64,000 bases of DNA from contig OZ038379.1 in the NCBI GenBank assembly GCA_964036045.1, positions 118,805,104 through 118,869,103 of the forward strand, given 5' to 3'. Position numbers and translations under genes: made by a program. Of this stretch, positions 19,403-64,000 are shown in pieces. Each line of letters opens with the position of its first letter. The first letter of the stretch is position 1. Under the pieces are notes generated by a model. It made no database searches and was not told where the DNA came from. It worked only from the letters and a program-made list of their open reading frames with translations. Source of the stretch: Eutreptiella sp. 'Long Island Sound 2002'. Taxonomy: Eukaryota; Euglenozoa; Euglenophyceae; Eutreptiales; Eutreptiaceae.

Positions 19403-19602
19403 NNNNNNNNNNNNNNNNNNNNNNNNNNNNNNNNNNNNNNNNNNNNNNNNNNNNNNNNNNNNNNNNNNNNNNNNNNNNNNNNNNNNNNNNNNNNNNNNNN
19501 NNNNNNNNNNNNNNNNNNNNNNNNNNNNNNNNNNNNNNNNNNNNNNNNNNNNNNNNNNNNNNNNNNNNNNNNNNNNNNNNNNNNNNNNNNNNNNNNNNNN
19601 NN
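19403..19602. other. Assembly gap (200 N)
   Basis: Exactly 200 N, which is a typical placeholder length, so the true size is unknown. It falls inside minisatellite sequence. Confidence 0.99.
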
Positions 19603-30785: not shown

Positions 30786-31451
30786 TCACCTCGCAGAGGT
30801 TGTTAGATCAAAGCCAGGCAGGCGTATATATGGGGAAAACGCCACATACCCCCCCATTTTGGCCTTTTTGGGCCTATTTGCGTACCCTACCCCAAGGGGT
30901 TGAATTGTTAGTTTAACCCCTTGTAAAATTATTATTTTGTCCAATAAACACATCCCCCAATGAGTTTTTGGTCCGGACCCCCCCAGACCCCCCCCACTTG
31001 AAACCCACTTTTTTGAGGTTTTGAGGGAGGTGGGGGGGGGGGTGGGGGGGGGGGGTCAAAAATGTCGAAAAAATGACCCCCCCTTTTTTTGGGTCGAAAA
31101 TCATGAATCTTTTGGTTTTTTTCGATTTTGAGCCGAAAAAGTGTTTCCGGGTCCCGACTCTATGGGGTTTGTATGGGGCGGAGCGGGACGAGCGCTTATG
31201 CAGTTTATGCACTTTTTGGCCATTTTTGCTATGTTGGCGGTTTTGGCAACCTCGGTGAACCCGTGGTACCCACCCTGAGGGGTGCGAGTGGGGATGTTGT
31301 GACAATATATGCCTACTAGGATACGGAAGGACATTTTTTGCATTCTCTAGCCTTGCCTAGGGCCGTTCACAACCCGTGCCAAAGACGCGAAATGGCTGTT
31401 TCCACCAATAATGGCCCAGTGAAGGGGCCAGTACACAACCTGCTAGCACAA

Positions 31452-34400
31452 TCACCTCGCAGAGGTTGTTAGATCAAAGCCAGGCAGGCGTATATATGGG
31501 GAAAACGCCACGTACCCCCCCATTTTGGCCTTTTTGGGCCTATTCGCGTACCCTACCCCAAGGGGTTGAATTGTTAGTTTAACCCCTTGTAAAATCATTA
31601 TTTTGTCCAATAAACGCATCCCCCAATGAGTTTTTGGTCCGGACCCCCCCAGACCCCCCCCACTTGAAACCCACTTTTTTCAGGTTTTGAGGGAGGGGGG
31701 GGTCAAAAAATGACCCCCCCATTTTTTGGGTCGAAAATCATGAATCTTTTGGTTTTTTTCGATTTTGAGCCGAAAAAGTGTTTCCGGGTCCCGACTCCAT
31801 AGGGTTTGTATGGGGCGGAGTGGGACGAGCGCTTATGCAGTTTATGCACTTTCCAGCCATTTTTGCTATGTTGGCGGTTTTGGCGACCTCGGTGACCCCG
31901 TGGTACCCACTTTGAGGGGTGCGAGTGGGGATGTTGTGACAGTATATGCATGCTAGGATACGGAAGGACGTTTTTTGCAGTCTCTAGCCTTGCTTAGGGC
32001 CGTTCACAACCCGTGCCAAAGACGCGAAATGGCTGTTTCCACCAATAATGGCCTAGTGAATGGGCCGCGGCACAACCTGCTTATGCAGTTTTTCACCCTA
32101 GGCAGCTCAAAAATGGAAGTTTTCGAAACTTCTTTTTTTGATATTGTGACCACCCAAAATGACCATCCAAGGTATGTAAAGCCTGTTTTAGGCCGTATTT
32201 ACGTGTTTTTCACCCTATTTGGGTAGTATGTCCGGGGGGGGGGAAGGTCCTCCGAAGGGATTGGTGCACAACCTGCTTATGCAGTTTTTCAACCCGGACA
32301 GCTCAAAAATCGAAGTTTTTGAAACTTTTTTCTTTGATATTGTGACCACCCAAAATGACCATCCAAGCTATGCAAAGCATATTTTAGGCCGTATTTGCGT
32401 GGTTTTCACCATATTTGGGTATTAGGTCCGGTGGGGAGGTGTGGGGGGGGGGGCTCCCAAGGGATTGGTACACAACCTGCTTATGCAGTTTTTCACCTTG
32501 GACAGCTCAAAAATCGAAGTCACCTCGCAGAGGTTGTTAGATCAAAGCCAGGCAGGCGTATATAGGGGAAAATGCCACATACCCCCCCATTTTGGCCTTT
32601 TTGGGCCTATTGGCGTACCCTACCTCAAGGGGTTGAATTGTTAGTTTAACCCCTTGTAAAATCATTATTTTGTCCAATAAATGCATCCCCCAATGAGTTT
32701 TTGGTCCGGACCCCCCCAGACCCCCCCCCACTTGAAACCCACTTTTTTGAGGTTTTCAAGGAGGGGGGGGGGGTGGGGGTGGGGGGGGGGGGGGTCAAAA
32801 AATGACCCCCCCTTTTTTTGGGTCGCAAATCATGAATCTTTTGGTTTTTTTTGATTTTGAGCCGAAAAATTGTTTCCGGGTCCCGACTCCATAGGGTTTG
32901 TATGGGGCGGAGTGGGACGAGCGCTGATGCAGTTTATGCACTTTTCAGCCATTTTTGCTATGTTGGCGGTTTTGGCAACCTCGGTGAACCCGTGGTACCC
33001 ACCCTGAGGGGTGCGAGTGGGGATGTTGTGACAGTATATGCCTACTAGGATACGGAAGGACGTTTTTTGCAGTCTCTAGCTTTGCTTAGGGCCGTTCACA
33101 ACCCGTGCCAAAGACGCGAAATGACTGTTTCCAACAATAATGGCTCAGTGAATGGGCCGGGACACAACCTGCTTATGCAGTTTTTCACCCCGGACAGCTC
33201 AAAAATCGAAGTTTCCGAAACTTACTTTTTTGACATCGTGATCACCTAAAATGACCATCCAAGGTATGTAAAGCATTTTTTAGGCCGTATTTACGTGTTT
33301 TTCACCCGATTTGGGTATTAGGTCCGGGGGGGGGGGTCTTCCAAGGGATTGGTACACAACCTGCTGATGCACTTTTTCACTATGGGCAGCTCAAAAATCG
33401 AAGTTTTCGAAACTTGTTTTTTTGATGTTGTGACCACTTAAAATGACCATCCAAGCTATGTAAAGCATGTTTCAGGCCGTATTTGCGTGTTTTTCACCCT
33501 ATTTGGGTGTTAGGTCCGGGGGGGGGGGGGGGGTCTCCCAAGGGACGGGTGCACAACCTGCTTATGCAGTTTTTCACCCCGGGCAGCTCAAAAATGGAAG
33601 TTTTCGAAACTTGTTTTTTTGATATTGTGACCACCTAAAATGACCATCCAAGCTATGGAAAGCATGTTTTAGGCCGTATTTACGTGTTTTTCACCCTTTT
33701 TGGGTGTTGGGTCCGGGGGGGGGGGGGTGTCTCCCAAGGGACGGGTGCACAACCTGCTTATGCAGTTTTTCACCCCGGACAGCTCAAAAATCGAAGTTTT
33801 TGCAACTTGTTTTTTTGATATTGTGACCACCTAAAATGACCATCCAAGCTATGGAAAGCATGTTTTAGGCCGTATTTACGTGTTTTTCACCCTTTTTGGG
33901 TGTTAGGTCGGGGGGGGGGGGTCTCCCCCAAGGGACGGGTGCACAACCTGCTTATGCAGTTTTTCACCCCGGACAGCTCAAAAATGGAAGTTTTCGAAAC
34001 ATATTTTTTTGATATTGTGACGACCCAAAATGACCATCCAAGGTATGTAAAGCATGTTTTAGGCCGTATTTACGTGTTTTTCGCCCTATTTGGGCATCAG
34101 GTCGGGGGGGGGGGGGGGGGGCTCCCAAGGGACGGGTGCACAACCTGCTTATGCAGTTTTTCACCCCGGACAGCTCAAAAATGGAAGTTTTTGAAACTTG
34201 TTTTTGTGATATTGTGATCACCTAAAATGACCATCCAAGGTATGTAAAGCATGTTTTAGGCCGTATTTACGTGTTTTTCACCCGATTTGGGTATTAGGTC
34301 CAAGGGGGGGGGGGTCTCCCAAGGGATTGGTACACAACCTGCTGATGCAGTTTGTCACCCTGGGCACCTCAAAAATGGAAGTTTTCGAAACTTGTTTTTT

Positions 34401-34541
34401 TGATACCGTGATCACCTAAAATGATCATCCAAGGTATGTAAAGCATGTTTTAGCCGGTATTTATGTAGTTTCCACCCTATTTTGCGTGTGTGTTGCTCGC
34501 GGTAGATTCTCTGCGAGGTGGACTTGCCGAAGGCAATAGAA
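31452..34541 (+). mobile_element. Element copy 2, nested in copy 1 (contains a third 5' module)
   Basis: Left flank 'gctagcacaa' and right flank 'tttttcaccctgggcagc' join into a perfect satellite monomer (compare 41295-41315), showing an insertion without target duplication. Inside, a second 5' end (TCACCTCGCAGAG at 32520) follows 'aaaaatcgaag' within a monomer but has no 3' end of its own. This suggests a further insertion followed by deletion or unequal exchange through the arrays. Satellite monomers occupy about 32075-32519 and 33165-34500. Confidence 0.75.
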
Positions 34542-34596
34542 TTTTTCACCCTGGGCAGCTCAAAAATCGAAGTTTTCAAAACTGGTTTTTATGAAA

Positions 34597-37500
34597 TCAC
34601 CTCGCAGAGGTTGTTAGATCAAAGCCAGGCAGGCGTATATATGGGGGAAACGCCACATACCCCCCATTTTGGGCCTATTCGCGTACCCTACCCCAAGGGG
34701 TTGAATTGTTAGTTTAACCCCTTGTAAAATCATTATTTTGTCCAATAAACGCATCCCCCAATGAGTTTTTGGTCCGGACCCCCCCAGACCCCCCCCACTT
34801 GAAACCCACTTTTTGGGGGGGGGTGGGGGTGGGGGGGGTGGGGGGGTCAAAAATGTCGAAAAAATGACCCCCCCTTTTTTTGGGTCGAAAATCATGAATC
34901 TTTTGGTTTTTTTCGATTTTGAGCCGAAAAAGTGTTTCCGGGTCCCGACTCCATAGGGTTTGTATGGGGCGGAGTGGGACGAGCGCTTATGCAGTTTATG
35001 CACTTTCCAGCCATTTTTGCTATGTTGGCGGTTTTGGCGACCTCGGTGAACCCGTGGTACCCACCCTGAGGGGTGCGAGTGGGGATGTTGTGACAGTATA
35101 TGCCTACTAGGATACGAAAGGACGTTTTTTGCAGTCTCTAGCCTTGCCTAGGGCCGTTCACAACCCGTGCCAAAGACGCGAAATGACTGTTTCCACCAAT
35201 AATGGCCTAGTGAATGGGGAGGTACACAACCTGCTTATGCAGTTTTTCACCCCAGGCAGCTCAAAAATCGAAGTCACCTCGCAGAGGTTGTTAGATCAAA
35301 GCCAGGCAGGCGTATATAGGGGAAAATGCCACATACCCCCCCATTTTGGCCTTTTTGGGCCTATTCGCGTACCCTACCCCAAGGGGTTGAATTGTTAGTT
35401 TAACCCCTTGTAAAATCATTATTTTGTCCAGTAACCGCATCCCCCAATGAGTTTTTGGTCCGGACCCCCCTAGACCCCCCCCACTTGAAACCCACTTTTT
35501 TGAGGTTTTCAAGGAGGGGGGGGGGTGGGGGGTGGGGGGGGGTGGGGGGGGGGTCAAAAAATGACCCCCCCTTTTTTTGGGTCGCAAATCATGAATCGTT
35601 TGGTTTTTTTTGATTTTGAGCCGAAAAAGTGTTTCCGGGTCCCGACTCCATAGGGTTTGTATGGGGCGGAGTGGGACAAGCGCTTATGCAGTTTATGCAC
35701 TTTTTCAGCCATTTTTGGTATGTTGGCGGTTTTGGCGACCTCGGTGACCCCGTGGTATCCACTTTGAGGGGTGGGAGTGGGGATGTTGTGACAGTATCTG
35801 CCTCCTAGTATACGGAAGGACGTTTTTTGCAGTCTCTAGCCTTGCTTAGGGCCGTTCACAACCCGTGCCAAAGACGCGAAATGACTGTTTCCACCAATAA
35901 TGGCTTAGTGAATGGGCTGGTACACAACCTGCTTATGCAGTTTTTTACCCTGGACAGCTCAAAAATCGAAGTTTCCGAAACTTACTTTTTTGACATCGTG
36001 ATCACCTAAAATGACCATCCAAGCTATGTAAAGCATGTTTTAGGCCGTATTTACGTGTTTTTCGCCCGATTTGGGTATTAGGTCCGGGGGGGGGGGGGGG
36101 GGCTTCCAAGGGATTGGTACACAACCTGCTTATGCACTTTTTCACTACGGGCAGCTCAAAGATCGAAGTTTTCGAAACTTGTTTTTTTGATGTTGTGACC
36201 ACTTAAAATGACCATCCAAGCTATGCAAAGCATGTTTTAGGCCGTATTTACGTGTTTCTCATCCTATTTGGGTATCAGGTCCGGGGGGGGGGGGGGGGCT
36301 CCCAAGGGACGGGTGCACAACCTGCTTATGCAGTTTTTCAACCCGGACAGCTCAAAAATCGAAGTTTTTGAAACTTTTTTTTTGATATTGTGACCACCCA
36401 AAATGACCATCCAAGCTATGGAAAGCATGTTTTAGGCCGTATTTACGTGTTTTTCACCCTATTTGGGTGTTGGGTCCGGGGGGGGGGGGTGTCTCCCAAG
36501 GGACGGGTGCACAACCTGCTTATGCAGTTTTTCAACCCGGACAGCTCAAAAATCGAAGTTTTCGAAACACATTTTTTTTATATTGTGACCACCCAAAATG
36601 ACCATCCAAGCTATGGAAAGCATGTTCTAGGCCGTATTTACGTGTTTTTCACCCTATTTGGGTATCAGGTCGGGGGGGGGGGGTCTCCCAAGGGACGGGT
36701 GCACAACCTGCTTATGCAGTTTTTCACCCCGGACGGCTCAAAAATGGAAGTTTTTGAAACTTGTTTTTGTGATATTGTGATCACCTAAAATGACCATCCA
36801 AGGTATGCAGAGCATGTTTTAGGCCGTATTTACGTGTTTTTCACCCGATTTGGGTATTAGGTCCAAGGGGGGGAGGGGGGGGTCTCCGAAGGGATTGGTA
36901 CACAACCTGCTGATGCAGTTTGTCACCCTGGGCACCTCAAAAATCGAAGTTTTCGAAACTTGTTTTTTTGATACCGTGATCACCTAAAATGATTATCCAA
37001 GGTATGTAAAGCATGTTTTAGCCGGTATTTATGTAGTTTCCACCCTATTTTGGGTGTGTGTTGCTCGCGGTAGATTCTCTGCGAGGTGGACTTGCCGAAG
37101 GCAATAGAATTTTCGAAACTTGTTTTTTTGATATTGTGACCACCCAAAATGACATTTCAAACTATGCAAAGCATGTTTTAGGCCGTATTTACGTGTTTTT
37201 CACCCTATTTGGGTGTTAGGTCCGGGGGGGGGGGGGTCTCCCAAGGGACGGGTGCACAACCTGCTTATGCAGTTTTTCACCCCGGACAGGTCAAAAATGG
37301 AAGTTTTCGAAACATATTTTTTTGATATTGTGACCACCCAAAATGACCATCCAAGCTATGGAAAGCATGTTTTAGGCCGTATTTACGTGTTTTTCACCCT
37401 ATTTGGGCATCAGGTCGGGGGGGGGGGGGGGGGCTCCCAAGGGACGGGTGCACAACCTGCTTATGCAGTTTTTCACCCCGGGCAGCTCAAAAATGGAAGT

Positions 37501-38243
37501 TTTTGAAACTTGTTTTTGTGATATTGTGATCACCTAAAATGACCATCCAAGGTATGTAAAGCATGTTTTAGGCCATATTTACGTGTTTTTCACCCGATTT
37601 GGGTATTAGGTCCAAGGGGGGGGGGTCTCCCAAGGGATTGGTACACAACCTGCTTATGCAGTTTTTCACCCTGGACAGCTCAAAAATGGAAGTTTTTCAA
37701 ACTTGTTTTTTTGATATTGTGACCACCCAAAATGACCATCCAAGCTATGGAAAGCATGTTTTAGGCCGTATTTACGTGTTTTTCACCCTATTTGGGCATC
37801 AGGTCGGGGGGGGGGGGGGGGGCTCCCAAGGGACGGGTGCACAACCTGCTTATGCAGTTTTTCACCCTGGGCAGCTCAAAAATGGAAGTTTTTGAAACTT
37901 GTTTTGGTGATATTGTGATCACCTAAAATGACCATCCAAGGTATGTAAAGCATTTTTTAGGCCATATTTACGTGTTTTTCACCCTATTTGGGTATCAGGT
38001 CCGGGGGGGTAGGGGGTCTCCCAAGGGATTGGTACACAACCTGTTCATGCAGTTTGTCACCTTGGGCAGCTCAAAAATCGAAGTTTTTGAAACTTGTTTT
38101 TTTGATACCGTGATCACCTAAAATGATCATCCAAGGTATGTAAAGCATGTTTTAGCCGGTATTTATGTAGTTTCCACCCTATTTTGGGTGCGTGTTGCTC
38201 GCGGTAGATTCTCTGCGAGGTGGACTTGCCGAAGGCAATAGAA
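34597..38243 (+). mobile_element. Element copy 4, nested in copy 1
   Basis: Left flank 'ggtttttatgaaa' and right flank 'ttgtgatcacctaaaatg' together restore a near-normal monomer. The copy has a full 5' module, then satellite, is itself interrupted at 35274-37109, and ends with the standard CTCTGCGAGGTG, hairpin and TAGAA. Confidence 0.7.
35274..37109 (+). mobile_element. Element copy 5, nested in copy 4
   Basis: Left flank 'gctcaaaaatcgaag' and right flank 'ttttcgaaacttg' join into an exact monomer. Because the left flank ends in G while the element ends in A, this copy fixes the termini without ambiguity: 5'-TCACC ... TAGAA-3', inserted between G and T with no duplicated target. It has a complete 5' module and about six monomers. 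Confidence 0.8.
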
Positions 38244-38639
38244 TTGTGATCACCTAAAATGACCATCCAAGGTATGTAAAGCATGTTTTAGGCTGTATTT
38301 ACATGTTTTTCACCCCTATTTGGGTATTAGGTCCCGGGGGGGGGGGGTCGTCTCCCAAGGGATTGGTACACAACCTGCTTATGCAGTTTTTCACCCTGGG
38401 CAGCTCAAAAATTGAAGTTTTCGAAACTTTTTTTTTTGATATTGTCACCACTTAAAATGACCATCCAAGGTATGTAAAGCATTTTTTAGGCCGTATTTAT
38501 GTAGTTTTTACCCTATTTAGGGTGTGTGTGGCTTGGGATAGAATCTCTGCGAGGTGGACTTGCCGAAGGCAATAGAATGAAAGAATAAAATTAAGGGGTT
38601 GGGAAAGATCAAGCCAACATGAAAAAGCTGGAAAAAACC

Positions 38640-40446
38640 AAAATCCGGAAAAAGTCTCCATAGGTCCCCATACGTCCCCATAGGTCCGTGTAAGTATCCA
38701 AAGGTTCCCAAAACTTCCCATAGGTCCCCATAGGCCCCCATAGGTTCCTAGAGGGCCCCCACGACCCCATAGGTCCCCATAGGTGCCAATAGGTCCCCAT
38801 ATGCCCCCCATAGGTCCCCATAGGTCCCAATAGGGCCCCATAGGCCCCCCTAGGCCCCCATAGGTCCCCATAGGTCCCAATGGACCCCATAGGGTCCCTT
38901 AGGTCCCCATAGGTCCCCACTGGTCCCCATAGGCCCCCATAGGTCGCCATAGGTCCCCATACGTCCCCATAAGTGCCAATGGGTCCCCATATGCCCCCAT
39001 ACGCCCTCAATAGGTCCCAATAGGTCCCAATAGGGCCCCATAGGCGCCCCTAGGCCCCATTAGGTCCCCATGGACCCCATAGGGTCCCCATAGGTCCCCA
39101 CTGGTCCCCATAGGTCCCCATAGGTGCCCCTAGGCCCCCATAGGTCCCCAAAGGTGCCCATAGGCCCCCATAGGTCCCCAAAGATCCCCATAGATCCCCA
39201 TAGGTCACCATAGGTCCCAATAGGTCCCCATAGGTGCCCCTTGGCCCCCAAGGGTCCCCATAGGTCCCCAAAGGAGCCAATAGGCCCCCATAGGTCCCCA
39301 TAGGCCCCCAAAGGTGCCCATAGGTCCCCATAGGCCCCCATAGGTGCCAATACGCCCCCATAGGTCCCAAAGGTCCCCATACGTCCCCATAGGTCCCCAA
39401 AGGAGCCAATAGGCCCCCACAGACCCCCATGGGTCCCCAAAGGTCCCCATAGGCCCCCATATGCCCCCATAGGTCCCCAAAGGTGCCCATAGGCCCCCAT
39501 AGGCCCCCATAGGTCCCCAAAGATCCCCATAGATCCCCATAGGTCACCATAGGTCCCAATAGGTCCCCATAGGTGCCCCTTGGCCCCCAAGGGTCCCCAT
39601 AGGTCCCCAAAGGAGCCAATAGGCCCCCATAGGTCCCCATAGGCCCCCAAAGGTGCCCATAGGTCCCCATAGGCCCCCATAGGTGCCAATACGCCCCCAT
39701 AGGCCCCCAAAGGTCCCAAAGGTCCCCATACGTCCCCATAGGTCCCCAAAGGAGCCAATAGGCCCCCACAGACCCCCATGGGTCCCCAAAGGTCCCCATA
39801 GGCCCCCATATGCCCCCATAGGTCCCCAAAGGTGCCCATAGGCCCCCATAGGCCCCCATAGGTCCCCAAAGATCCCCATAGATCCCCATAGGTCACCATA
39901 GGTCCCAATAGGTCCCCATAGGTGCCCCTTGGCCCCCAAGGGTCCCCATAGGTCCCCAAAGGAGCCAATAGGCCCCCATACGTCCCCATAGGCCCCCAAA
40001 GGTGCCCATAGGTCCCCATAGGCCCCCATAGGTGCCAATACGCCCCCATAGGCCCCCAAAGGTCCCAAAGGTCCCCATACGTCCCCATAGGTCCCCAAAG
40101 GAGCCAATAGGCCCCCACAGACCCCCATGGGTCCCCAAAGGTCCCCATAGGCCCCCATATGCCCCCATAGGTCCCCATAGGTCCCCAAAGGTCCCCATAG
40201 GTCCCCATAGGCCCCCATAGGTCCCCATAGGCCCCCATGGGCCCCTATAGGTGCCAATAGGCCCCCATAGGTCCCCATAGGTCCCCAAAGTTACCCATAG
40301 GTCCCCAAAGGTGCCAATAGGCCCCCATAGGCCCCCACAGGTCCCCATAGGTCCCCAAAGGCCCCCATAGGTCCCCATAGGTCGCTATAGGCCCACATAG
40401 GTCCCCATAGGTCCCCAAAGGCCCCCATAGGTCCCCATATGTCCCC
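38640..40446. repeat. Decamer satellite (CCCCATAGGT) with ~340-350 bp higher-order repeat
   Basis: About 1.8 kb of 10-bp units, mostly ccccataggt with variants (ccccaaaggt, cccaataggt). A variant block beginning 'aagatccccatagatcccc' recurs at 39181, 39520 and 39869, giving a higher-order unit of 339-349 bp. Because 10 bp repeats in phase every 30 bp, the minus strand is open for hundreds of codons as a Gly/Trp/Tyr repeat; this is a by-product, not a gene. Confidence 0.9.
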
Positions 40447-40448
40447 TC

Positions 40449-40502
40449 AGGGAGTCATCGCATCCCCTCTAAACTAGTGTATACCCCATGCGATGATTCC
40501 CT
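40449..40502. repeat. Imperfect inverted repeat, 15-bp arms
   Basis: AGGGAGTCATCGCAT (40449-40463) and ATGCGATGATTCCCT (40488-40502) are complementary except for one base, with a 24-base spacer. It lies between the decamer satellite and the 53-bp repeat. It could be a small structured RNA or the ends of a tiny inverted-repeat element; nothing distinguishes these. Confidence 0.6.
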
Positions 40503-40506
40503 AAAG

Positions 40507-40559
40507 GTTTTACGAACAAAGCAAAACGCAAATCAGGCATATTGTGGCTCCTCGCTGCT
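40507..40559 (+). repeat. 53-bp direct repeat, left copy
   Basis: Begins 'gttttacgaacaaagc' and ends 'ctcctcgctgct'. An almost identical copy (one mismatch) lies at 50021-50073. The pair flanks the block of element copies 6-8. Confidence 0.9.
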
Positions 40560-41285
40560 GCACCATATTCCACAAAGGCGTACAGACGCCATAGAAACAC
40601 ATGTTGTTCGTGGTGGGTGGGCGGGCTTCCCCAGGCAAAATCACCTCGCAGAGGTTGTTAGATCAAAGCCAGGCAGGCGTATATATGGGGAAAATGCCAC
40701 ATACCCCCCCATTTTGGCCTTTTTGGGCCTATTGGCGTACCCTACCCCAAGGGGTTGAATTGTTAGTTTAACCCCTTGTAAAATCATTATTTTGTCCAAT
40801 AAACGCATCCCCCAATGAGTTTTTGGTCCGGACCCCCCCAGACCCCCCCCACTTGAAACCCACTTTTTTGAGGTTTTGAGGGAGGTGGGGGGGGGGTGGG
40901 GGGGGGGGTCAAAAATGTCGAAAAAATGACCCCCCCTTTTTTTGGGTTGAAAATCATGAATCTTTTGGTTTTTTTCGATTTTGAGCCGAAAAAGTGTTTC
41001 CGGGTCCCGACTCTATGGGGTTTGTATGGGGCGGAGCGGGACGAGCGCTTATGCAGTTTATGCACTTTTTGGCCATTTTTGCTATGTTGGCGGTTTTGGC
41101 GACCTCGGTGACCCCGTGCTACCCACTCAGAGGGGTGTGAGTGGGGATGTTGTGACAGTATATGCCTACTAGGATACGGAAGGACATTTTTTGCAGTCTC
41201 TAGCCTTGCCTAGGGCCGTTCACAACCCGTGCCAAAGACGCGAAATGGCTGTTTCCACCAATAATGGCCTAGTGAATGGGCCAGA

Positions 41286-43728
41286 ACACAACCTGCTAGC
41301 ACAATTTTTCACCCTGGGCAGCTCAAAAATCGATGTTTTTGCAACTTGTTTTCTTGATATTGTGACCACCCACAATGACCATCCAAGGTATGTAAAGCAT
41401 GTTTTAGGCCGTATTTACGTGTTTTTCACCCTATTTGGGTATCAGGTCCGGGAGTGTAGGGGGGCTCCCAAGGGATTTGCTACACAACCTGCTTATGTAG
41501 TTTTTCACCCTGGGCAGCTCAAAAATGGAAGTTTTTGAAACTTGTTTTTTTGATATTGTGACCACCCACAATGACCATCCAAGGTATGTAAAGCATGTCT
41601 TAGGCCGTATTTACGTGTTTCTCACCCTATTTGGGTATCAGGTCCGGGGGGGGGTAGGGGGTCTCCCAAGGGATTGGTACACAACCTGCTTATGCAATTA
41701 TTCACCCTGGACAGCTCAAAAATGGAAGTTTTTGAAACTTGTTTTTTTGACATTGTGACCACCCACAATGACCATCCAAGGTATGTAAAGCATGTCTTAG
41801 GCCGTATTTACGTGTTTCTCACCCTATTTGGGTATCAGGTCCGGGGGGGGGCGGGTCTCCCAAGGGATTGGTACACAACCTGCTTATGCAGTTTTTCACC
41901 CTGGGCAGCTCAAAAATGGAAGTTTTTGAAAATTGTTTTTCTGATATTGTGACCACCTAAAATGACCATCCAAGGTATGTAAAGCATGTTTTAGGCAGTA
42001 TTTACGTGTTTCTCACCCTATTTGGGTATCAGGTCCGGGGGTGGGGGGTCTCCCAAGGGATTGCTACACAACCTGCTTATGCAGTTTTTCACCCTGGACA
42101 GCTCAAAAATGGAAGTTTTTGAAATTTGTTTTTTTGATATTGTGACCACCCACAATGACCATCCAAGGTATGTAAAGCATGTCTTAGGCCGTATTTACGT
42201 GTTTCTCACCCTATTTGGGTATTAGGTCCGGGGGGGGGGGGGGTCTCCCAAGGGATTGGTACACAACCTGCTTATGCAGTTTTTCACCCTAAGCAGCTCA
42301 AAAATGGAAGTTTTTGAAAATTGTTTTTCTTGTATTGTGACCACCTATAATGACCATCCTAGCTATGTAAAGCATGTTTTAGGCAGTATTTACGTGTTTC
42401 TCACCCTATTTGGGTATCAGGTCCGGGGGGGGGGGGGTCTCTCAAGGGATTTGCTACACAACCTGCTGATGCAGTTTTTCACCCTGGACAGCTCAAAAAT
42501 GGAAGTTTTTGAAATTTGTTTTTTTGATTCCATGACCACCTAAAATGACCATCCAAGATATGTAAAGCATGTTTTAGGCCGTATTTACGTGTTTTTCACC
42601 CTATTTGCTTATCGGGTCCGGGGGGGGGGGTCTCCCAAGGGATTTGCTACACAACCTGCTTATGCAGTTTTTCACCCTGGGCAGCTCAAAAATGGAAGTT
42701 TTTGAAACTTGTTTTTTTGATATTGTGACCACCCACAATGACCATCCAAGGTATGTAAAGCATGTTTTAGGCCGTATTTACGTGTTTCTCGGCCTATTTG
42801 GGTATCGGGTCCGGGGGGGGAGGGGGGCTCCCAAGGGATTGGTACACAACCTGTTTATGCAGTTTTTCACCCTGGGCAGCTCGAAAATGGAAGTTTTTGA
42901 AACTTGTTTTTTTGATATTGTGACCACCTAAAATGACCATCCACGATATGTAAAGCATGTCTTAGGCCGTATTTACATGTTTTTCACCCTATTTGGGTAT
43001 TAGGTCCGGGGGGGTAGGGGGGCTCCCAAGGGATTGGTACACAACCTGTTTATGTGGTTTTTCACCCTGGGCAGCTCAAAAATGGAAGTTTTTCAAACTT
43101 GTTTTTCTGATATTGTGACCACCTAAAATGACCATCCAAGATATGTAAAGCATGTTTTAGGCCGTATTTACATGTTTTTCACCCTATTTGGGTATTTGGT
43201 CCGGGGGGGCGGGGGGGGGCTCCCAAGGGATTGGTACACAACCTGCTTATGCAGTTTTTCACCCTGGACAGCTCAAAAATGGAAGTTTTTGAAACTTGTT
43301 TTTTTTGATATTGTGACCACCTAAAATGACCATCCAAGCTATGTAAAGCAGGTTTTAGGCCGTATTTACATGTTTGTCACCCATTTGGGTATCAGGTCCT
43401 GGGGGGGGGGGGTCTCCTAGGGGATTGGTACACAACCTGTTTATGCAGCTTTTCACCCTGGGCAGCTCAAAAATGGAAGTGTTTGAAACTTGTTTTTTTT
43501 GATATTGTGACCACCTAAAATGACCATCCAAGCTATGTAAAGCAGGTTTTGGGCCGTATTTACATGTTTGTCACCCTATTTGGGTATCAGGTCCTGGGGG
43601 GGGGGGGTCTCCCAAGGGATTGGTACACAACCTGCTAATGCAGTTTTTCACCCTGGACAGCTCAAAAATGGAAGTTTTTCAAACTTGCCTTTTTGATTCC
43701 ATGACCGCCTAAAATGACCATCCAAGAT
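41286..43728 (+). repeat. ~195-bp satellite array inside copy 6
   Basis: About 12 monomers, landmarked by 'acacaacctgcttatgcag', 'cagctcaaaaatggaag', 'gatattgtgaccacc' and 'cctatttgggtatcaggtcc' followed by a G run. Several monomers here have 'cccacaatgacc' instead of 'cctaaaatgacc'. Confidence 0.95.
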
Positions 43729-43753
43729 TGTCCCAAGGGTGCCAAGTAGAGGC

Positions 43754-44150
43754 CTATTGGCCTGCGCAAGAGGCTGTAGACTGCTTGATCTGCTTGTTTT
43801 GGCCTGTCTGCTGTGTGTAGTCAATTGGTAAATCCCGCTCTTCATCCGGCGTTGTCCGTGCAGGTGTTGTTGATATTTTGATGCCTGGTTTCTTTTGATT
43901 TGGTTTAGCTGGCAGAAATTGCGTCCAAGTTTGTTGTTTTTGAAGAATACATAGTGCACTTTCCAAGTTTTGCAAGGTGTGGCAGAAAGTTCATGCGCGG
44001 CTCTCTACATTGGCAAATAGAAACCTCGTTTGCAGATTTAAGTTGCTGTTGGTAGTCACTTGTTGTGCATTCACACGCCGCGTGACTAAATGTCACGGGT
44101 ATGCCATCCTGTTTCTTGTAATGCAGTGGAGTGGTGCATGATCCATATTC
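43754..44150 (-). pseudogene. Gene fragment, unknown protein
   Basis: One minus-strand frame reads VNAQQVTTNSNLNLQTRFLF, then VESRA, TGA (43991-43993), TFCHTLQNLESALCILQKQQ and on to TPARTTPDEERDLPIDYT, ending at 43754. Glutamine- and threonine-rich; no domain recognised. The TGA fits a CGA origin. Both ends are lost. Confidence 0.4.
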
Positions 44151-44439
44151 CTTTGTCTACCACGCGCAGAACGGAATCAACGTTTTTTGTTCGTCAAAAA
44201 TGAATCCCTAAAGTTTTGTGCTTCCGGGGGGTTTTTGCACGTGCCGGACGTCGTGGAGGCATCCGTTTTGTTCATTTCCACCGTTTTCCATGTGAGAAGT
44301 GTATCATGCCATTGCCTCTACCTTGCCTCCCGTGCTTCGTGTGCCGCGCGTGCTATGCATGTTACGCATTCTAAGCGTTTGATTGTAGGTGTGCCTCCGG
44401 AAACCAAATAACAGGTGTCGCATATCCGTGCAGGGCACG

Positions 44440-46396
44440 TTTCGGGTGCCGCGCGTATCGAATAATATGCTTATGGAGGCCGGAACCCACGTTTTGCGCG
44501 AGCTACGCGTCCTCCTGTGCCACAACCCTTTCTTTATGCCCGCATCCCTTTTCCCGGACAGCCACAAGCAGTGGCTTGCCAAGGGGGGCCACCTGGGGAG
44601 CTGGGGGAACGCGTCCACGCTAAAACACAACGTGTTCATCGTGTTCGAGATTAAACCCCACACATGTATCTGATTGTTTAACGGGGTGGAGTGCGGGTGT
44701 TGTGCCTTTTGATGCCCCCCACGTCGATGCCGTTCGTTTTGCATTTTTGTTTTTGCTTCTCGGGTTGTTTCTTCATAACCGGTTGGCACGCAACCTGAGT
44801 GAACGGCAAGAAGTTCGGCAGCAAGGATCGCGGAGAGGATGAGATGTTCCTCACCAACGTGACCACATACCAAGTATCCATGCATAACACGTGCCACGTT
44901 GTTTTGTATGTTCGCACCGTCCCCAGCGCTCATCAAGCTGCGCACACACCCCAATTTTGCTACCTGCAGATTAGGACGAAGAAAGGAAACCCGCGTGATC
45001 CCGCAAAGGTCCAAGATTGCAGCGCCAAGCCGGATGGGTGGTTCAAGTATACAAAGGTTGTATTGCGCGCGCCGCGTGTTGCATCTGTAAGTGATTCTGC
45101 CCCGTGTCATACGCGTTTTGCGCGTGTTGCGCGTTCTGCGCGTTCCGGTGATGTGGCTTTTGTTCCGCCTCTGGGGGCGCCGCCACCGTGCTACACGTGC
45201 TGCGCGTCGTGCAGATCCAACACAACCGATTGTGAACCTGATTGGAGGGCGCAGACGAAGAGAGTGAGGAGGATGAGGTGGACTAGACAGCACATGGCAA
45301 GAAGCAGGCCCGAGGCGCACTGAAGAAGCCGAAGCGAGAGGAGGGGCATTCCGACGACGACCCAGAGGACAACCCCGTTGTGCCGGAGAAAGGGTCTTCC
45401 GCGAAGCAGCACGGTCCACCGTGCTGGAAGTGAAGCAGGAGCCACAGACCATGGCAGAGAAGAAGAAGCGGAAGCGAGAGGACCGGAGCCCGCCTAAGGT
45501 ACCACCAAAGAAGTTCGAGGCGGAGATGCCCAAGAAAAAGGAGGACAAGGACAAGGCAGTCCGTGGTCAGGTGTCCTTAGCGATTTCCGGGAAGGGCCCA
45601 CATAAGAGCATCAGCGCCGCACCGACAAGGGCAGAGAAGTTCCGGCACGAAGGCAGGTACGACCGTGATCTTGACACAATGTAGAGAATCTTGGAGACGG
45701 ACTTCAATGCGAGTTTGGGCATATTGGTGATGCACTACAAGGACTGTTTGTCAGAGGAACCCGAGTCAGGGCAAGAGATCGGTATGGCAGTTCTGCTGCA
45801 CACCGGTGTCTGGGCCCTGAGCGTGCAAAGCGTGCTAAGCTGCGGAGCCAAGAATGCCCAATCGGCTGCAGCACCCCGTGAGTATTTCGAAAAGCGGTAT
45901 CCCTCGAGTAGCTCACAACCAGTGGCGGAGGGGTTGTTGAAGGGCCTTTCGGTTTGTACGGGGTTGCGTCTCCGCACCGCAATGGCCATGGGACCTCAGC
46001 CGGCCATCGGAGGGTACCAGTCTGGCCAAGCCAAAGATGGAGGGCCTGCGAAGTGGTTGTGGAGGTGGCGGGGCCGATGGGGTCAACGCAATGGGCATCG
46101 AAGACATTGTTGACATGGGAACGGATGTTTTGCAGGTGTTGCGCACGGCCTCTATAGTGCTTCTGTAACGTCGTGCCGCACGTCATGTGCGTTCCGCGCG
46201 TTCTACGCGTGTGCCACTGACCTGCCTCTGGAGGACCATTCACGTATTCCGCGTTGTGCATGACAAGTTCTTCCGTTACGTTCGGATGGCCCGTTTGATG
46301 GCGTACGAGTTGGAAGAAGAACGGAACCTCGAACTCCCGTCGTCTGGAGAATGGTCATTGGTGCGCACCCGAGAGCTGGCGGCGAAGAAACCGCGG
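44440..46396 (+). pseudogene. Multi-exon gene fragment, unknown protein
   Basis: Exons with usable splice sites join in frame. About 44440-44665 (RELRVLLCHNPFFMPASLF; donor T/GTATCT) joins 44800-44873 (GSKDRGEDEMFLTNVTTYQ), then 44970-45056 (acceptor CTGCAG/AT; KPDGWFKYTK/GTTGTA), then 45215-46135, a long exon. That exon is acidic then Lys-rich (EEDEVD, TAG at 45284-45286, TAHGKKQARGALKKPKREEG). It later has TAG at 45682-45684 between RDLDTM and RILETDFNASLGILVMHYK, and ends at donor CAG/GTGTTG. A last exon (to 46396) reads FFRYVRMARLMAYELEEERN. Frameshifts near 45245 and 45415 and the two TAGs show decay. Intron sequences share a 'gtgttgcgcgttctgcgcg' flavour. No family recognised; the Lys-rich stretches suggest a nuclear protein. 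Confidence 0.45.
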
Positions 46397-47106
46397 GTAT
46401 TTGCGTGCTTCGTGGTGTCGGTGGTGTGTGTGATATTGCCTCCGCTCCGCGTCTGGAGGTCAGTCGTCGCGTGAAGCGAGTTCTACGTGTCTTGCACGTA
46501 TGATTCTACGTACGCTTCCCGGAGGAGGTTGTGCCGTGCTACCCGTTGTGCAGGCTACCGCTTGGGATTGGGAGCCCCCTCACATGAGTGGGTACCACTA
46601 CCCGCACCTTCCCCCCATGTAAAGCATGTTTTAGGCCGTATTTACATGTTTTTCACCCTATTTGGGTATTAGGTCCGGGGGGGGGGGTCTCCCAAGGGAT
46701 TGGTACACAACCTGATTAAGCAGTTTTTCACCCTGGACAGCTCAAAAATCAAAGTTTTTGAAACTTGTTTTTTTGATATTGTGACCACCTAAAATGACCA
46801 TCCAAGATATGTAAAGCATGTTTTAGGCCGTATTTACATGTTTCTCACCCTATGTGGGTATTGGCTGCACGGGGGGGGGGGGTGACCCAAGGGATTGGTA
46901 CACAACCTTATGCGGTTTTTCACCCTCAACAGCTCAAAAATCGAAGTTTTCGAAACTTGTTTTTTTGATATTGTCACCACTTAAAATGACCATCCAAGGT
47001 ATGTAAAGCATTTTTTGGGCCGTATTTATGTAGTTTTTACCCTATTTAGGGTGTGTGTGGCTTGGGGTAGAATCTCTGCGAGGTGGACTTGCCGAAGGCA
47101 ATAGAA

Positions 47107-48163
47107 TCACCTCGCAGAGGTTGTTAGATCAAAGCCAGGCAGGCGTATATAGGGGAAAACGCCTCATACCCCCCCATTTTGGCCATTTTGGGCCTATTCG
47201 CGTACCCTACCCCAAGGGGTTGAATTGTTAGTTTAACCCCTTGTAAAATCATTATTTTGTCAAATAAATGCATCCCCCAATGAGTTTTTGGTCCGGACCC
47301 CCCCAGACCCACCTCACTTGAAACCCACTTTTTTCAGGTTTTGAGGGAGGGGGGGCGGGGGGGTGCGGGGGGGTGGGGGGGGGGGTCAAAAAATGACCCC
47401 CCCTTTTTTTGGGTCGAAAATCATGAATCTTTTGGTTTTTTTCGATTTTGAGCCGAAAAAGTTTTTCCGGCTCCCGACTCTATGGGCTTTGTATGGGGCG
47501 GAGTGGGACGAGCGCTTATGCAGTTTAAGCACTTTTTGGCCATTTTTGCTATGTTCGTCGACCTCGGTGACCCCGTGGTACCTACCCTGAGAGGTGCAAG
47601 TGGGGATGTTGTGACAGTATATGCCTACTAGGATACGGAAGGACGTTTTTTGCAGTCTCTAGCCTTGCCTAGGGCCGTCCACAACCCGTGCCAAAGACGC
47701 GAAATGACCGTTTCCACCAATAATGGCCTAGTGAATGGGCCAGTACACAACCTGCTTATGCAGTTTTTCAACCTGGGCTGCACAAAAATCGAAGTTTTCG
47801 AAACTTGTTTTTTTGATATTGTGACCACCTAAAATGACCATCCAAGCTATGTAAAGCATGTTTTAGGCCGTATTTACGTGGTTTTCACCATATTTGGGTA
47901 TTAGGTCCGGGGGGGAGGGGTGGGGGGGGGGGGGGGGCTCCCAAGGGACGGGTGCACAACCTGCTTATGCAGTTTTTCACCTTGGACAGCTCAAAAATCG
48001 AAGTTTTCGAAACTTGTTTTTTTGATATTGTCACCACTTAAAATGACCATCCAAGGTATGTAAAGCATTTTTTGGGCCGTATTTATGTAGTTTTTACCCT
48101 ATTTAGGGTGTGTGTGGCTTGGGGTAGAATCTCTGCGAGGTGGACTTGCCGAAGGCAATAGAA
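47107..48163 (+). mobile_element. Element copy 7, short, tandem
   Basis: A 1,057-bp copy with intact termini, a full 5' module and only about two monomers before the 3' end. It sits head-to-tail between copies 6 and 8 with no intervening base. Its module shares private variants with copy 8 ('ctatgttcgtcgacctcgg', 'gtttaagcactttttggcc'), so the two are close relatives. Confidence 0.85.
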
Positions 48164-49955
48164 TCACCTCGCAGAGGTTGTTAGATCAAAGCCAGGCAGG
48201 CGTATATAGGGGAAAACGCCACATACCCCCCCATTTTGGCCATTTTGGGCCTATTCGCGTACCCTACCCCAAGGGGTTGAATTGTTAGTTTAACCCCTTG
48301 TAAAATCATTATTTTGTCAAATAAATGCATCCCCCAATCAGTTTTTGGTCCGGACCCCCCCCAGACCCCCCTCACTTGAAACCCACTTTTTTCAGGTTTT
48401 GAGGGAGGGGGGGGGGGGGGTGCGGGGGGGTGGGGGGGGGTCAAAAAATGACCCCCCCTTTTTTTGGGTCGAAAATCATGAATCTTTTGGTTTTTTTCGA
48501 TTTTGAGCCGAAAAAGTTTTTCCGGGTCCCGACTCTATGGGGTTTGTATGGGGCGGAGTGGGACGAGCGCTTATGCAGTTTAAGCACTTTTTGGCCATTT
48601 TTGCTATGTTCGTCGACCTCGGTGACCCCGTGGTACCTACCCTGAGAGGTGCAAGTGGGGATGTTGTGACAGTATATGCCTACTAGGATACGGAAGGACG
48701 TTTTTTGCAGTCTCTAGCCTTGCCTAGGGCCGTCCACAACCCGTGCCAAAGAGTGAATGGGCCAGTACACAACCTGCTAATGCAGTTTTTCAACCTGGGC
48801 AGCACAAAAATCGAAGTTTTCGAAACTTGTTTTTTTGATATTGTGACCACCCACAATGACCATCCAAGCTATGTAAAGCATCTTTTAGGCCGTATTTACG
48901 TGGTTTTCACCATATTTGGGTATTAGGTCCGGGGGGGGGGGGGCTCCCAAGGGACGGGTGCACAACCTGCTTATGCAGTTTTTCACCTTGGACAGCTCAA
49001 AAATCGAAGTTTTCGAAACTTGTTTTTTTGATATTGTGACCACCTAAAACGACCATCCAAGCTATGGAAAGCATGTTTTAGGCCGTATTTACGTGTTTTT
49101 CACTCTTTTTGGGTGTTAGGTCGGGGGGGGGGGACGGGTCTCCCAAGGGACGGGTGCACAACCTGCTTATGCAGTTTTTCACCCCGGACAGCTCAAAAAT
49201 GGAAGTTTTCGAAACATATTTTTTTCATATTGTGACCACCCAGAATGACCATCCAAGCTATGGAAAGCATGTTTTAGGCCGTATTTACGTGTTTTTCACC
49301 CTATTTGGGTATCAGGTCGGGGGGGGGGGGGTCTCCCAAGGGACGGGTGCACAACCTGCTTATGCAGTTTTCCACCCCGGACAGCTCAAAAATGGAAGTT
49401 TTTGAAACTTGTTTTTGTGATATTGTGATCACACAAAATGACCATCCAAGGTATGTAAAGCATGTTTTAGGCCGTATTTACGTGTTTTTCACCCGATATG
49501 GGTATTAGGTCGGGGGGGGGGGGTCTCCCAAGGGACGGGTGCACAACCTGCTTATGCAGTTTTTCACCCCGGACAGCTCAAAAATGGAAGTTTTTGAAAC
49601 TTGTTTTTGTGATATTGTGATCACCTAAAATGACCATCCAAGGTATGTAAAGCATGTTTTAGGCCGTATTTACGTGTTTTTCACCCTATTTGGGTATCAG
49701 GTCCGGGGGGGCGGGGGGGGGGGGGGGGTCTCCCAAGGGATTGGTACACAACCTGCTTATGCAGTTTGTCACCCTGGGCAGCTCAAAAATGGAAGTTTTC
49801 GAAACTTGTTTTTTTGATACCGTGATCACCTAAAATGATCATCCAAGGTATGTAAAGCATGTTTTAGCCGGTATTTATGTAGTTTCCACCCTTTTTTGGG
49901 TGTGTGTTGCTCGGGGTAGATTCTCTGCGAGGTGGACTTGCCGAAGGCAATAGAA
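48164..49955 (+). mobile_element. Element copy 8, tandem
   Basis: A 1,792-bp copy with intact termini and about six monomers. It follows copy 7 directly and ends TAGAA before 'tttcaaaaacaatctgg'. A deletion in the module removes about 35 bp after 'cccgtgccaaag' relative to other copies. Confidence 0.85.
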
Positions 49956-62100: not shown

Positions 62101-64000
62101 AAAAATGGAAGTTTTTGAAACTTGTTTTTTTGATATTGTGACCACCTAAAATGACCATCCAAGATATGTAAAGCATGTTTTAGGCAGTATTTACATGTTT
62201 TTCACCCTATTTGGGTATTAGGTCAAGGGGGGGTAGGGGGGCTCCCAAGGGATTGGTACACAACCTGTTTATGCAGTTTTTCACTCAAAAATGGAAGTTT
62301 TTGAAACTTGTTTTTCTAATATTGTGACCACCTAAAATGACCATCCAAGCTATGTAAAGCATGTTTTAGGCCGTATTTACGTGTTTTTCATCCTATTTGG
62401 GTATCAGATCCGGGGGGGGGGGGGTCTCCTAGGGGATCGGTATACAACCTGCTAATGCAGTTTTTCACCCTGGACAGCTCAAAAATGGGAGTTTTCAAAC
62501 TTGCCTTTTTGATTCCATGACCACCTAAAATGACCATCCAAGATATGTAAAGCATGTCTTAGGCCGTATTCACATGTTTTTCACCCTATTTGGGTATCAG
62601 GTCCGGGGGGGGGGGGGGTCTCCAAGGGATTGGTACACAACCTGTTTATGCAGTTTTTCACCCTGGGCAGCTCAAAAATGGAAGTTGTTGAAACTTGTTT
62701 TTTTGATATTGTGACCACCTAAAATGACCATCCAAGATATGTAAAGCATGTCTTAGGCCGGATTTACATGTTTTTCACCCTATTTGGGTATCAGGTCCGG
62801 GGGGGGGGGGGGGGGGTCTCCCAAGGGATTGGTACACAACCTGCTTATGCAGTTTTTCACCCTGGGCAGCTCAAAAATGGAAGTTTTTGAAACTTGTTTT
62901 TTGATATTGTGACCACCCACAATGACCATCCAAGGTATGTAAAGCATGTTTTAGGCCGTATTTACATGTTTCTCACCCTATTTGGGTATCAGGTCCGGGG
63001 GGGGGGGGGGGGGTAGGGGGGCTCCCAAGGGATTGGTACACAACCTGCTTATGCAATTTTTCACCCTGGGCAGCTCGAAAATGGAAGTTTTTGAAACTTG
63101 TTTTTTGATATTGTGACCACCTCAATTGACCATCCTAGCTATGTAAAGCATGTTTTAGGCATCATTTACATGTTTTTCACCCTATTTGGGTATTAGGTCC
63201 GGGGGGGTAGGGGGGCTCCCAAGGGATTGGTACACAACCTGTTTATGAAGTTTTTCACCCTGGGCAGCTCAAAAATGGAAGTTTTTGAAACTTGTTTTTT
63301 TGATATTGTGACCACCTAAAATGACCATCCAAGATATGTAAAGCATGTTTTAGGCCGTATTTACGTGTTTCTCAGCCTAGTTGGGTATCAGGTCCGGGGG
63401 GGTAGGGGGGCTCCCAAGGGATTGGTACACAACCTGTTTATGCAGTTTTTCACCCTGGGCAGCTCAAAAATGGAAGTTTTGAAACTTGTTTTTTTGATAT
63501 TGTGACCACCTAAAATGACCATCCAAGATATGTAAAGCATGTCTTAGGCCGTATTTACATGTTTTTCACCCTATTTGGGTATCAGGTCCGGGGGGGGGGG
63601 GGGGGTCTCCCAAGGGATTGGTACACAACCTGCTTATGCAGTTTTTCACCCTGGGCAGCTCAAAAATGGAAGTTTTTGAAACTTGTTTTTTTGATATTGT
63701 GACCACCCACAATGACCATCCAAGGTATGTAAAGCATGTTTTAGGCGGTATTTACATGTTTCTCACCCTATTTGGGTATCAGGTCCGGGGGGGGGGGGGG
63801 GGAGGGGGGCTCCCAAGGGATTGGTACACAACCTGCTTATGCAGTTTTTCACCCTGGGCAGCTCAAAAATGGAAGTTTTTGAAACTTGTTTTTTTGATAT
63901 TGTGACCACCTAAAATGACCATCCAAGATATGTAAAGCATGTTTTAGGCATTATTTACATGTTTTTCACCCTATTTGGGTATTAGGTCCGGGGGGTAGGG
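53162..64000 (+). repeat. 10.8-kb array of the ~195-bp G-tract satellite, running off the window
   Basis: About 55 monomers, all in one orientation. 'ggtcc' landmarks at 54408, 54603, 54798 and 54993 give an exact 195-bp period; others vary by a few bases with the length of the G run (7-19 G, often interrupted as GGGGGGGTAGGGGGG). Monomers fall into recognisable types that recur in order, forming 4-5-mer blocks of about 780-980 bp and larger duplications. No 5' module or 3' terminus of the element family is seen in this stretch, so it may be the interior of one very long copy. Occasional open frames arise because 195 is a multiple of 3. Confidence 0.95.

What the first reader, a model, noticed from the sequence alone, without database searches (positions are those of the whole stretch)
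30786..49955. Satellite-carrying Helitron2/Helentron-like element family
Eight copies of TCACCTCGCAGAG (30786, 31452, 32520, 34597, 35274, 40641, 47107, 48164) and seven copies of CTCTGCGAGGTGGAC + TTGCCGAAGGCAA + TAGAA define an element. The 12-bp CACCTCGCAGAG is at the 5' end, but its complement sits 21 bp inside the 3' end, followed by a 5-bp-stem hairpin. Insertions fall between A or G and T without target duplication. This matches asymmetric-inverted-repeat Helitrons (Helitron2/Helentron, and their HINE derivatives that carry internal tandem repeats). The conserved ~650-bp 5' module plus an expandable 195-bp array appears to be a satellite being spread by rolling-circle transposition.
Basis: partly seen in the sequence, partly recalled or inferred. 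Interest (0 to 1): 0.9.

Follow-up and report, generated by a model that had tools for sequence, protein, structure and literature searches.

The report
Satellite-carrying Helitron2-type mobile DNA family
A family of mobile DNA elements, whose ends look like those of rolling-circle transposons, carries a 195-base satellite repeat through a large eukaryotic genome and often lands inside its own earlier copies; the kind is known from oysters and fruit flies, and the enzyme that moves this family was not found.

Summary
In detail: eight 5' ends and seven 3' ends lie at the stated places. They bound one unit (1.06-7.8 kb in the window): T + CACCTCGCAGAG hairpin end, ~660-bp module, 195-bp array, complementary 12-mer, hairpin, TAGAA. 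The 2.28-Gb genome holds 6,438 such 5' ends and 6,538 such 3' ends at up to 3 mismatches. On C1, 54 of 77 listed exact 3' ends have an exact same-strand 5' end within 10 kb upstream (random mean 0.33; 23 have one downstream). Copies nested in satellite give built-in empty sites without target duplication. The terminal structure fits published Helitron2 (PMC3627910, passages); satellite-carrying non-autonomous Helentrons are published in oyster (PMC7492417, passages). Insertion is A|T, unlike the TT or TTTT sites of those groups. The genome has at least 150 Helitron Rep-domain matches, but none was found with these ends, so the mechanism is inferred. New points: neighbours within 6 kb mostly share a strand (40 of 41 by 3' ends, 33 of 36 by 5' ends), one copy looks like an exchange product of its neighbours, and element arrays are close to a free satellite array of at least 20 kb.

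The parts
30786..38577 (+). Element A, outermost of a nest (5' end 30786, 3' end 38577)
   Evidence: Ends; nesting read from flank continuity
31452..34541 (+). Element B nested in A; its 3' part is fused with that of C
   Evidence: Joined flanks align across the junction to other copies and satellite: 102 spanning alignments, 101 without gap
32520..34541 (+). Element C nested in B, no separate 3' end; sister of E
   Evidence: Units 1-3 nearest to E units 1-3, 94-97%; right flank is that of B
34597..38243 (+). Element D nested in A
   Evidence: Joined flanks: 101 spanning alignments, 84 without gap
35274..37109 (+). Element E nested in D
   Evidence: Joined flanks: 102 spanning alignments, 85 without gap
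40641..47106 (+). Element F, array interrupted by a foreign 2.9-kb stretch
   Evidence: arrays 41286-43726 and 46617-47028
43727..46616 (.). Non-satellite stretch in F with exon-like frames; one frame belongs to a multi-copy family
   Evidence: 37 related proteins, 63-84% identity to a 94-aa frame
47107..48163 (+). Element G, head-to-tail after F; H-type 5' module and F-type 3' tail
   Evidence: 5' module 98.2% to H, tail 98.4% to F; unit G.1 97.4% to H.1
48164..49955 (+). Element H, head-to-tail after G
30786..30800 (+). 5' end: T + 12-base repeat CACCTCGCAGAG, part of hairpin ACCTC-GCA-GAGGT (same sequence in all eight copies)
   Evidence: first 45 alignment columns invariant
49923..49955 (+). 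3' end: complementary 12-mer, GAC, hairpin TTGCC-GAA-GGCAA, TAGAA (same sequence in all seven)
32070..32520 (+). 195-bp array in B, left of C
33163..34482 (+). 195-bp array in B/C
35919..37055 (+). 195-bp array in E
37103..38189 (+). 195-bp array in D, right part (the run starts in the last bases of E's 3' end)
41286..43726 (+). 195-bp array in F (12.5 units)
   Evidence: units as close to the free array as to one another
46617..47028 (+). 195-bp array in F, right of the foreign stretch
48768..49903 (+). 195-bp array in H
53162..64000 (+). Free 195-bp satellite array without element ends; goes on through the next 10 kb (L066), also without element ends
   Evidence: satellite covers 9,512 of 10,000 bases of L066

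Best explanation
This is a high-copy family of non-autonomous transposons with Helitron2-type ends. SHOWN: constant ends that bound one unit, insertion between A (or G) and T without duplication at three sites, thousands of ends on both strands of the genome, copies inside copies, head-to-tail copies, arrays inherited at least partly as blocks. INFERRED: a Rep-helicase supplied in trans nicks at the 3' TAGAA end and/or the 5' T end, copies one strand by rolling circle, stops when the 5' hairpin or 12-mer is reached, and joins the single strand at an A|T site. INFERRED: the 195-bp array changes length by unequal exchange inside the element and with other arrays, so that transposition spreads the satellite and exchange lengthens it. 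The exchange step is supported by element G, which has the 5' part of H and the 3' part of F.
For: Genome counts 6,438 and 6,538 with zero in the reversed control. Pairing of 54 of 77 listed 3' ends against a mean of 0.33 (at most 5) in 1,000 random placements; 3 of 77 have an opposite-strand 5' end upstream; 23 of 77 have a same-strand 5' end downstream, which measures the clustering. 22 distinct units of 174-6,466 bp. Of 24 true 5' ends, 22 are preceded by A and 2 by G; all 37 distinct 3' ends there are followed by T. Empty sites mostly without gap. 5' hairpin in copy A and 3' hairpin in copy H predicted. Terminal invariance in the window: 45 columns at the 5' end (0 of 20,000 shuffles), 34 at the 3' end (24 of 20,000). 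Partial block inheritance of arrays and kinship of F's array with the free array. Rep-domain matches in the genome, two read as Rep plus PIF1 helicase.
Against: No Rep-helicase gene with these ends: none in 34 stretches, 143,497 bases, around Rep matches, but 30 of these are only about 3.5 kb long and need not reach element ends; and only 150 of 863 candidates were scored. The A|T target differs from the published Helitron2 and Helentron targets. The hairpins are short and not clearly better than shuffles (z -1.05, -0.82, -1.39), and in copy A the 3' hairpin is not in the minimum-energy fold. An invariant run of 37 columns also occurs inside the module, so invariance is not confined to the end. 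The shared strand of neighbours is not a plain prediction of random insertion. L028 has satellite on its left and no satellite match on its right, so not every copy shows a simple empty site.
Confidence: 0.85

Rival explanations
1. A Helitron1-type (canonical) family with drifted ends: TC at the 5' end and A|T insertion. This shares the rolling-circle mechanism with the best explanation, so the two odds are not exclusive.
For: 5' TC and A|T insertion are Helitron1 features (PMC4067079, passages); the best-scoring Rep group has Helitron_like_N plus PIF1 domains.
Against: The 3' end is TAGAA, not CTRR; the 12-base asymmetric inverted repeat and the 5' hairpin are Helitron2 features (PMC3627910, passages).
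Confidence: 0.15
2. Not transposition but satellite evolution: the element-like pieces are higher-order units spread by unequal exchange and segmental duplication.
For: G looks like an exchange product; neighbours mostly share a strand; C and E sit at the same satellite position.
Against: Of 100 listed exact 3' ends on C1, 36 have no other listed one within 10 kb and strands are 50:50; flanks differ from copy to copy right at the ends; the F-G-H block and units in L025, L069, L073 and L075 have no satellite or module match in 80 bases on either side; a 174-bp unit almost without array has the same ends.
Confidence: 0.04
3. Another kind of transposon with short inverted repeats and a one-base (T) target duplication.
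For: T stands on both sides of nearly every copy, so one base cannot be assigned.
Against: The inverted repeats are asymmetric (1 base from the 5' end, 21 from the 3' end) with a hairpin outside the inner one; no other superfamily of that make-up is known to me (recalled, not searched).
Confidence: 0.04

Closest known systems
Cg_HINE elements of the Pacific oyster (PMC7492417, passages seen)
   Same: Non-autonomous, subterminal inverted repeats of 11-12 bp, palindrome at the 3' end, central array of satellite-like units (about 170 bp) in fixed orientation, no target duplication, link to classical satellite; no autonomous partner could be related to them there either
   Different: Here one family with about 6,500 ends of each kind; target A|T rather than TT; a 45-base 5' end invariant in the window; self-nesting and head-to-tail copies; module of ~660 bp
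Helitron2 (PMC3627910, passages seen)
   Same: 8-15 bp asymmetric inverted repeats, 5' repeat folding with its downstream bases, 3' repeat just upstream of a hairpin, 5' T
   Different: No Rep-helicase gene seen in this family; Chlamydomonas Helitron2 inserts after TTTT
FoHeli of Fusarium oxysporum (PMC5148889, passages seen)
   Same: FoHeli1/2 start with TCA (one form T[c/a]A), have an inverted repeat and a hairpin with GAA loop, insert after TNAT; joined-end forms reported
   Different: Full copies encode Rep-helicase, end ATTTT; no satellite array mentioned in the passages seen
DINE-1 / HINE of Drosophila and mite (PMC4067079, passages seen)
   Same: Subterminal inverted repeats, 3' palindrome, central repeats
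   Different: TT or T-rich target; partner Helentrons identified

Membership tests
[quoted passage not shown]
   12 bp, 1 base from the 5' end and 21 bases from the 3' end, all 8 and 7 copies of the window
Helitron2 | 5' repeat forms a hairpin with its downstream bases | tested here: met
   ACCTC-GCA-GAGGT predicted in copy A; energy not clearly below shuffles, z -1.05
Helitron2 | 3' repeat subterminal, immediately upstream of a hairpin | tested here: met
   3 bases before TTGCC-GAA-GGCAA; hairpin in the predicted fold of copy H, not of copy A
Helitron2 | Rep-helicase of the Helitron2 clade with the same ends | tested here: inconclusive
   None in 34 Rep stretches nor seen in the odd-end copies examined; search incomplete
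Helitron2 | Insertion after TTTT (as in Chlamydomonas) | tested here: not met
   A|T; 22 of 24 left flanks end in A, 2 in G
Helentron / HINE | TT dinucleotide target | tested here: not met
   A or G before, T after; the base after that T is often but not always T (A of the window has TG, L029 TA)
Helentron / HINE | Central tandem repeats between two end modules | tested here: met
Helentron / HINE | Partner with AP endonuclease domain | not tested
   No partner found
Helitron1 (canonical) | 5' TC | tested here: met
Helitron1 (canonical) | 3' CTRR | tested here: not met
   Ends TAGAA
Helitron superfamily | No target site duplication | tested here: met
   Three nested sites, most alignments of joined flanks without gap (101 of 102, 84 of 101, 85 of 102); not testable for A and F-G-H (0 spanning hits)

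The most novel reading that the evidence does not exclude
The satellite is both cargo and landing pad: single-strand copies are inserted into their own satellite in one orientation, because insertion follows the strand exposed at the replication fork (or because concatemeric rolling-circle products insert head-to-tail). This would make the element a self-nesting engine that builds long, strand-coherent satellite arrays. Support: neighbours within 6 kb share a strand in 40 of 41 cases by listed 3' ends and 33 of 36 by listed 5' ends, although the satellite offers similar numbers of RAR|T sites on both strands (166 and 174), and 5 of 30 genome copies abut another 5' end exactly. Against it: opposite-strand neighbours exist (L073; C1:1776549-1776615). 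Not excluded: plain duplication of existing nests by exchange or by transposition of the outer copy.
Probability: 0.2. Interest if true: 0.75.

Novelty: new member of a known kind. Interest (0 to 1): 0.45.

Why it matters
Where satellite DNA comes from and how it spreads is a long-standing question. Here one sequence family shows the steps side by side: a mobile element with an array, copies with few to more than 12 units, signs of exchange between arrays, and a free array of at least 20 kb of the same repeat. With about 6,500 ends of each kind, insertion rules, array length change and strand bias can be measured by computation alone. The published parallels seen are in animals (oyster, fruit fly); the host here is not named, so whether the lineage is new cannot be said.

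Tried and rejected
Autonomous partner: looked for by (a) Helitron_like_N in the genome (150 of 863 candidates scored); (b) 3' ends with foreign letters before them, 31 found, of which seven were looked at (L004, L015/L061, L067, L068-L071); (c) 5' ends with foreign letters after them, 8 found, of which five were fetched and looked at. No Rep-helicase frame was seen, but a direct protein comparison was run only on L068-L076, about 3-4 kb each; for L061 and L067 only long frames were listed, and of L004 only 1.5 kb before the end was held. These were ordinary copies, a 174-bp mini-copy (L075), copies with foreign DNA, or fragments beside other genes.

Gene capture by F: first suspected because 43727-46616 looks like exons and introns. 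Weakened: a 94-aa frame from it has 37 relatives, so it belongs to a multi-copy sequence; it interrupts the satellite almost cleanly (by eye). It may be another insertion.

No match to a 20-letter exact 3'-end pattern in viral contigs or in prokaryote genome contigs, nor of 47108-49953 in phages. Rfam at gathering scores: nothing. Pfam on 119 of the 221 reading frames of 75 aa or more outside the arrays: six families with E up to 0.01, of which only RNase_H, RVT_1 and RVT_3 are of note; no helicase.

Not answered: count of head-to-tail junctions genome-wide, and the origin of the F insert in the genome. Empty sites of A and F-G-H in the genome were not searched. The genome search machine was mostly busy.

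Full report
OBSERVATION. In the window each 5' end reads T-CACCTCGCAGAG-GTTGTTAGATCAAAGCC, each 3' end CTCTGCGAGGTG-GAC-TTGCCGAAGGCAA-TAGAA. TRF finds the 195-bp arrays between them and a further array from 53162 to the window's end.

ANATOMY IN THE WINDOW. Reading flanks as satellite phase resolves two groups. Group 1 is a nest: A (30786-38577) holds B (31452-34541) and D (34597-38243); D holds E (35274-37109); B holds C (32520), which has no 3' end of its own, so its 3' part and that of B are fused, as a deletion between direct repeats would give. Group 2 is F (40641-47106), G (47107-48163) and H (48164-49955), head-to-tail with no base between them. For B/C, D and E the joined flanks align across the junction to other places in the window: 102, 101 and 102 spanning alignments, of which 101, 84 and 85 have no gap. 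These are natural empty sites: nothing is duplicated or lost if the unit is TCACC...TAGAA. Because T stands on both sides, one base cannot be assigned; the unit could also be CACC...TAGAAT. For A and for F-G-H no empty site was found in the window (0 spanning hits).

RELATEDNESS OF COPIES. 5' modules are 92-98% identical. 3' tails fall into two types (B/C, E, D, H against A, F, G; 87-90% between types, 96-98% within). G has the H-type module (98.2%) and the F-type tail (98.4%), and its first unit is nearest to that of H (97.4%). This is what an unequal exchange between the arrays of F and H gives; it needs no transposition. C and E share unit order at the start (units 1-3, 94-97%) and sit at the same satellite position, so they are probably related by copying of a nest rather than by two independent insertions. 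Some units correspond across copies by position near the 3' end (for example BC.6 and D2.2 at 99.0%), so arrays are inherited at least partly as blocks. Units of F's array are as close to the free array (mean 92.1%) as to one another (91.5%). The unit analysis used 89 units cut at 100 anchors; irregular spacings were dropped. The free array goes on through the next 10 kb: satellite matches cover 9,512 of 10,000 bases of L066, with no element end at up to 3 mismatches.

GENOME SCALE. At up to 3 mismatches there are 6,538 3' ends (3,177 and 3,361 by strand) and 6,438 5' ends (3,188 and 3,250), the reversed patterns giving none. The near-equal numbers speak against heavy truncation at one end. 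The tool lists only the first places, all exact and on C1. On C1 up to 107.4 Mb (77 of the 100 listed 3' ends, 89 of the 100 listed 5' ends), 54 of 77 3' ends have a 5' end upstream on the same strand within 10 kb (median unit 1,883 bp), against a mean of 0.33 and at most 5 in 1,000 random placements; 3 of 77 have one on the opposite strand, and 23 of 77 have a same-strand one downstream, which shows how clustered the copies are. The 23 unpaired 3' ends may have 5' ends with mismatches, which the list does not show. The 30 genome loci were the first exact 3' matches on C1, so they are not a random sample and their perfect 3' ends are a selection effect. Among them, all 30 have T after TAGAA, and 5 of 30 are followed at once by another 5' end (one of these with a mismatch), with a sixth 6 bases away. 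Pooled with the window and L061: 22 of 24 true 5' ends follow A and 2 follow G (5 of the 29 rows are 3' ends read from the other strand and were left out), and all 37 distinct 3' ends are followed by T. Among 22 complete units, 18 follow A and 4 follow G, and 21 are followed by T and one (in L069) by A. Of these 22 units, those in L025, L073 (plus strand), L075 and the first of L069 have no satellite or module match in 80 bases (28 on the left of L075) on either side; the same holds for the F-G-H block; A has only an 18-base module match on its left.

UNUSUAL COPIES. L061 holds two head-to-tail elements, the second with about 3 kb of foreign DNA between its array and the last ~48 bases. L075 is a 174-bp unit with 24 bases of 5' end; L076 has 27 bases of 5' end directly on satellite. 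If these moved as such, some 25 bases suffice at the 5' end; they may also be deletion products. L012 has, by eye, a single diverged satellite-like unit between a diverged module and the tail, which hints that the array grew from sequence inside the element, but contraction is possible too.

STRAND OF NEIGHBOURS. In the list of 100 exact 3' ends on C1 (50 on each strand), neighbours within 6 kb share a strand in 40 of 41 cases; in the list of 100 exact 5' ends (58 on the plus strand) in 33 of 36. All eight 5' ends of the window are on one strand. Counter-examples: L073 holds units on both strands, and two 5' ends stand head-to-head at C1:1776549-1776615. The satellite offers similar numbers of target-like sites on both strands (RAR|T 166 and 174; AAT 121 and 247, so if anything more on the other strand), so target supply does not explain it. 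Duplication of nests, transposition of an outer copy with its passenger, rolling-circle concatemers, and strand-led insertion all could.

ENZYME. The genome has 150 scored Helitron_like_N matches, all over the cut-off, out of 863 candidates, in two groups by score. One of each was read: a 1,924-aa frame with Rep, PIF1 and Pif1_2B domains, and a 2,631-aa frame with Rep, PIF1 and SAP domains and a DnaJ match just below its cut-off. Neither has the family's ends within the 18 and 19 kb examined. Of 15 Rep matches on C1 below 109.97 Mb, the nearest listed exact 5' end is 42.9 kb away; by eye none lies within 20 kb of a listed exact 3' end. No partner is therefore known.

COMPARISON. Published Helitron2 ends (PMC3627910, passages) agree in four terminal features: short asymmetric inverted repeats, 5' hairpin, 3' repeat before a hairpin, 5' T. 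Non-autonomous Helentrons that carry satellite-like arrays are published in the Pacific oyster, also without a related partner (PMC7492417, passages). Differences are the A|T target, the copy number of one family, the 45-base 5' end invariant in the window (0 of 20,000 shuffles; but a 37-column invariant run also lies inside the module), and the self-nesting. Six searches of the paper library listed no paper whose title or abstract start describes this family, but only the top of each list was shown, its ends cannot be searched for as text, and the host is unknown.

VERDICT. A real, large transposon family; Helitron2-type by its ends, membership not closed for lack of a partner; satellite cargo shown; mechanism inferred. 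New member of a known kind.

Noticed in passing
window 38654-40446: 10-bp minisatellite GTCCCCATAG, about 180 copies, between elements A and F.
   Followed up: no
window 50154-52980 (-): Reverse-transcriptase / RNase H-like fragments (RVT_3 match below its cut-off in 50154-51098); a search with that frame gave 50 proteins, one of them the window's own. They end next to the free satellite array.
   Followed up: partly
window 22075-22437 (-): Two diverged units of the same satellite (71% identity) on the opposite strand, with no element ends near.
   Followed up: no
G000 C13:10435153-10443045 (L064, L065): A 2,631-aa Rep-helicase frame with an added SAP domain and a near-threshold DnaJ match, flanked on both sides by repeats of about 162 bp, with large inverted repeats between the two sides.
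   Followed up: partly
window 43727-46616: Exon-like stretch inside F; a frame from it belongs to a multi-copy family of unknown function.
   Followed up: partly
satellite site AAAAATCGAAG|TTTTCG (C, E; L070, L076; variant GGAAA|TTTTC in L005, L006, L007): The same satellite position carries a 5' end in several places; hot spot or copied nests.
   Followed up: partly
G000 C1:1776549-1776615: Two exact 5' ends head-to-head with one base between the matches.
   Followed up: no
L067 and six other 3' ends (five of the seven on C13): A 3' end preceded by ATGTTATT, with only its last 36 bases closely family-like, near an LRR-protein-like frame; no 5' end within 9.7 kb in the one copy read.
   Followed up: partly
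window 19403-19602: 200 N, an assembly gap.
   Followed up: no
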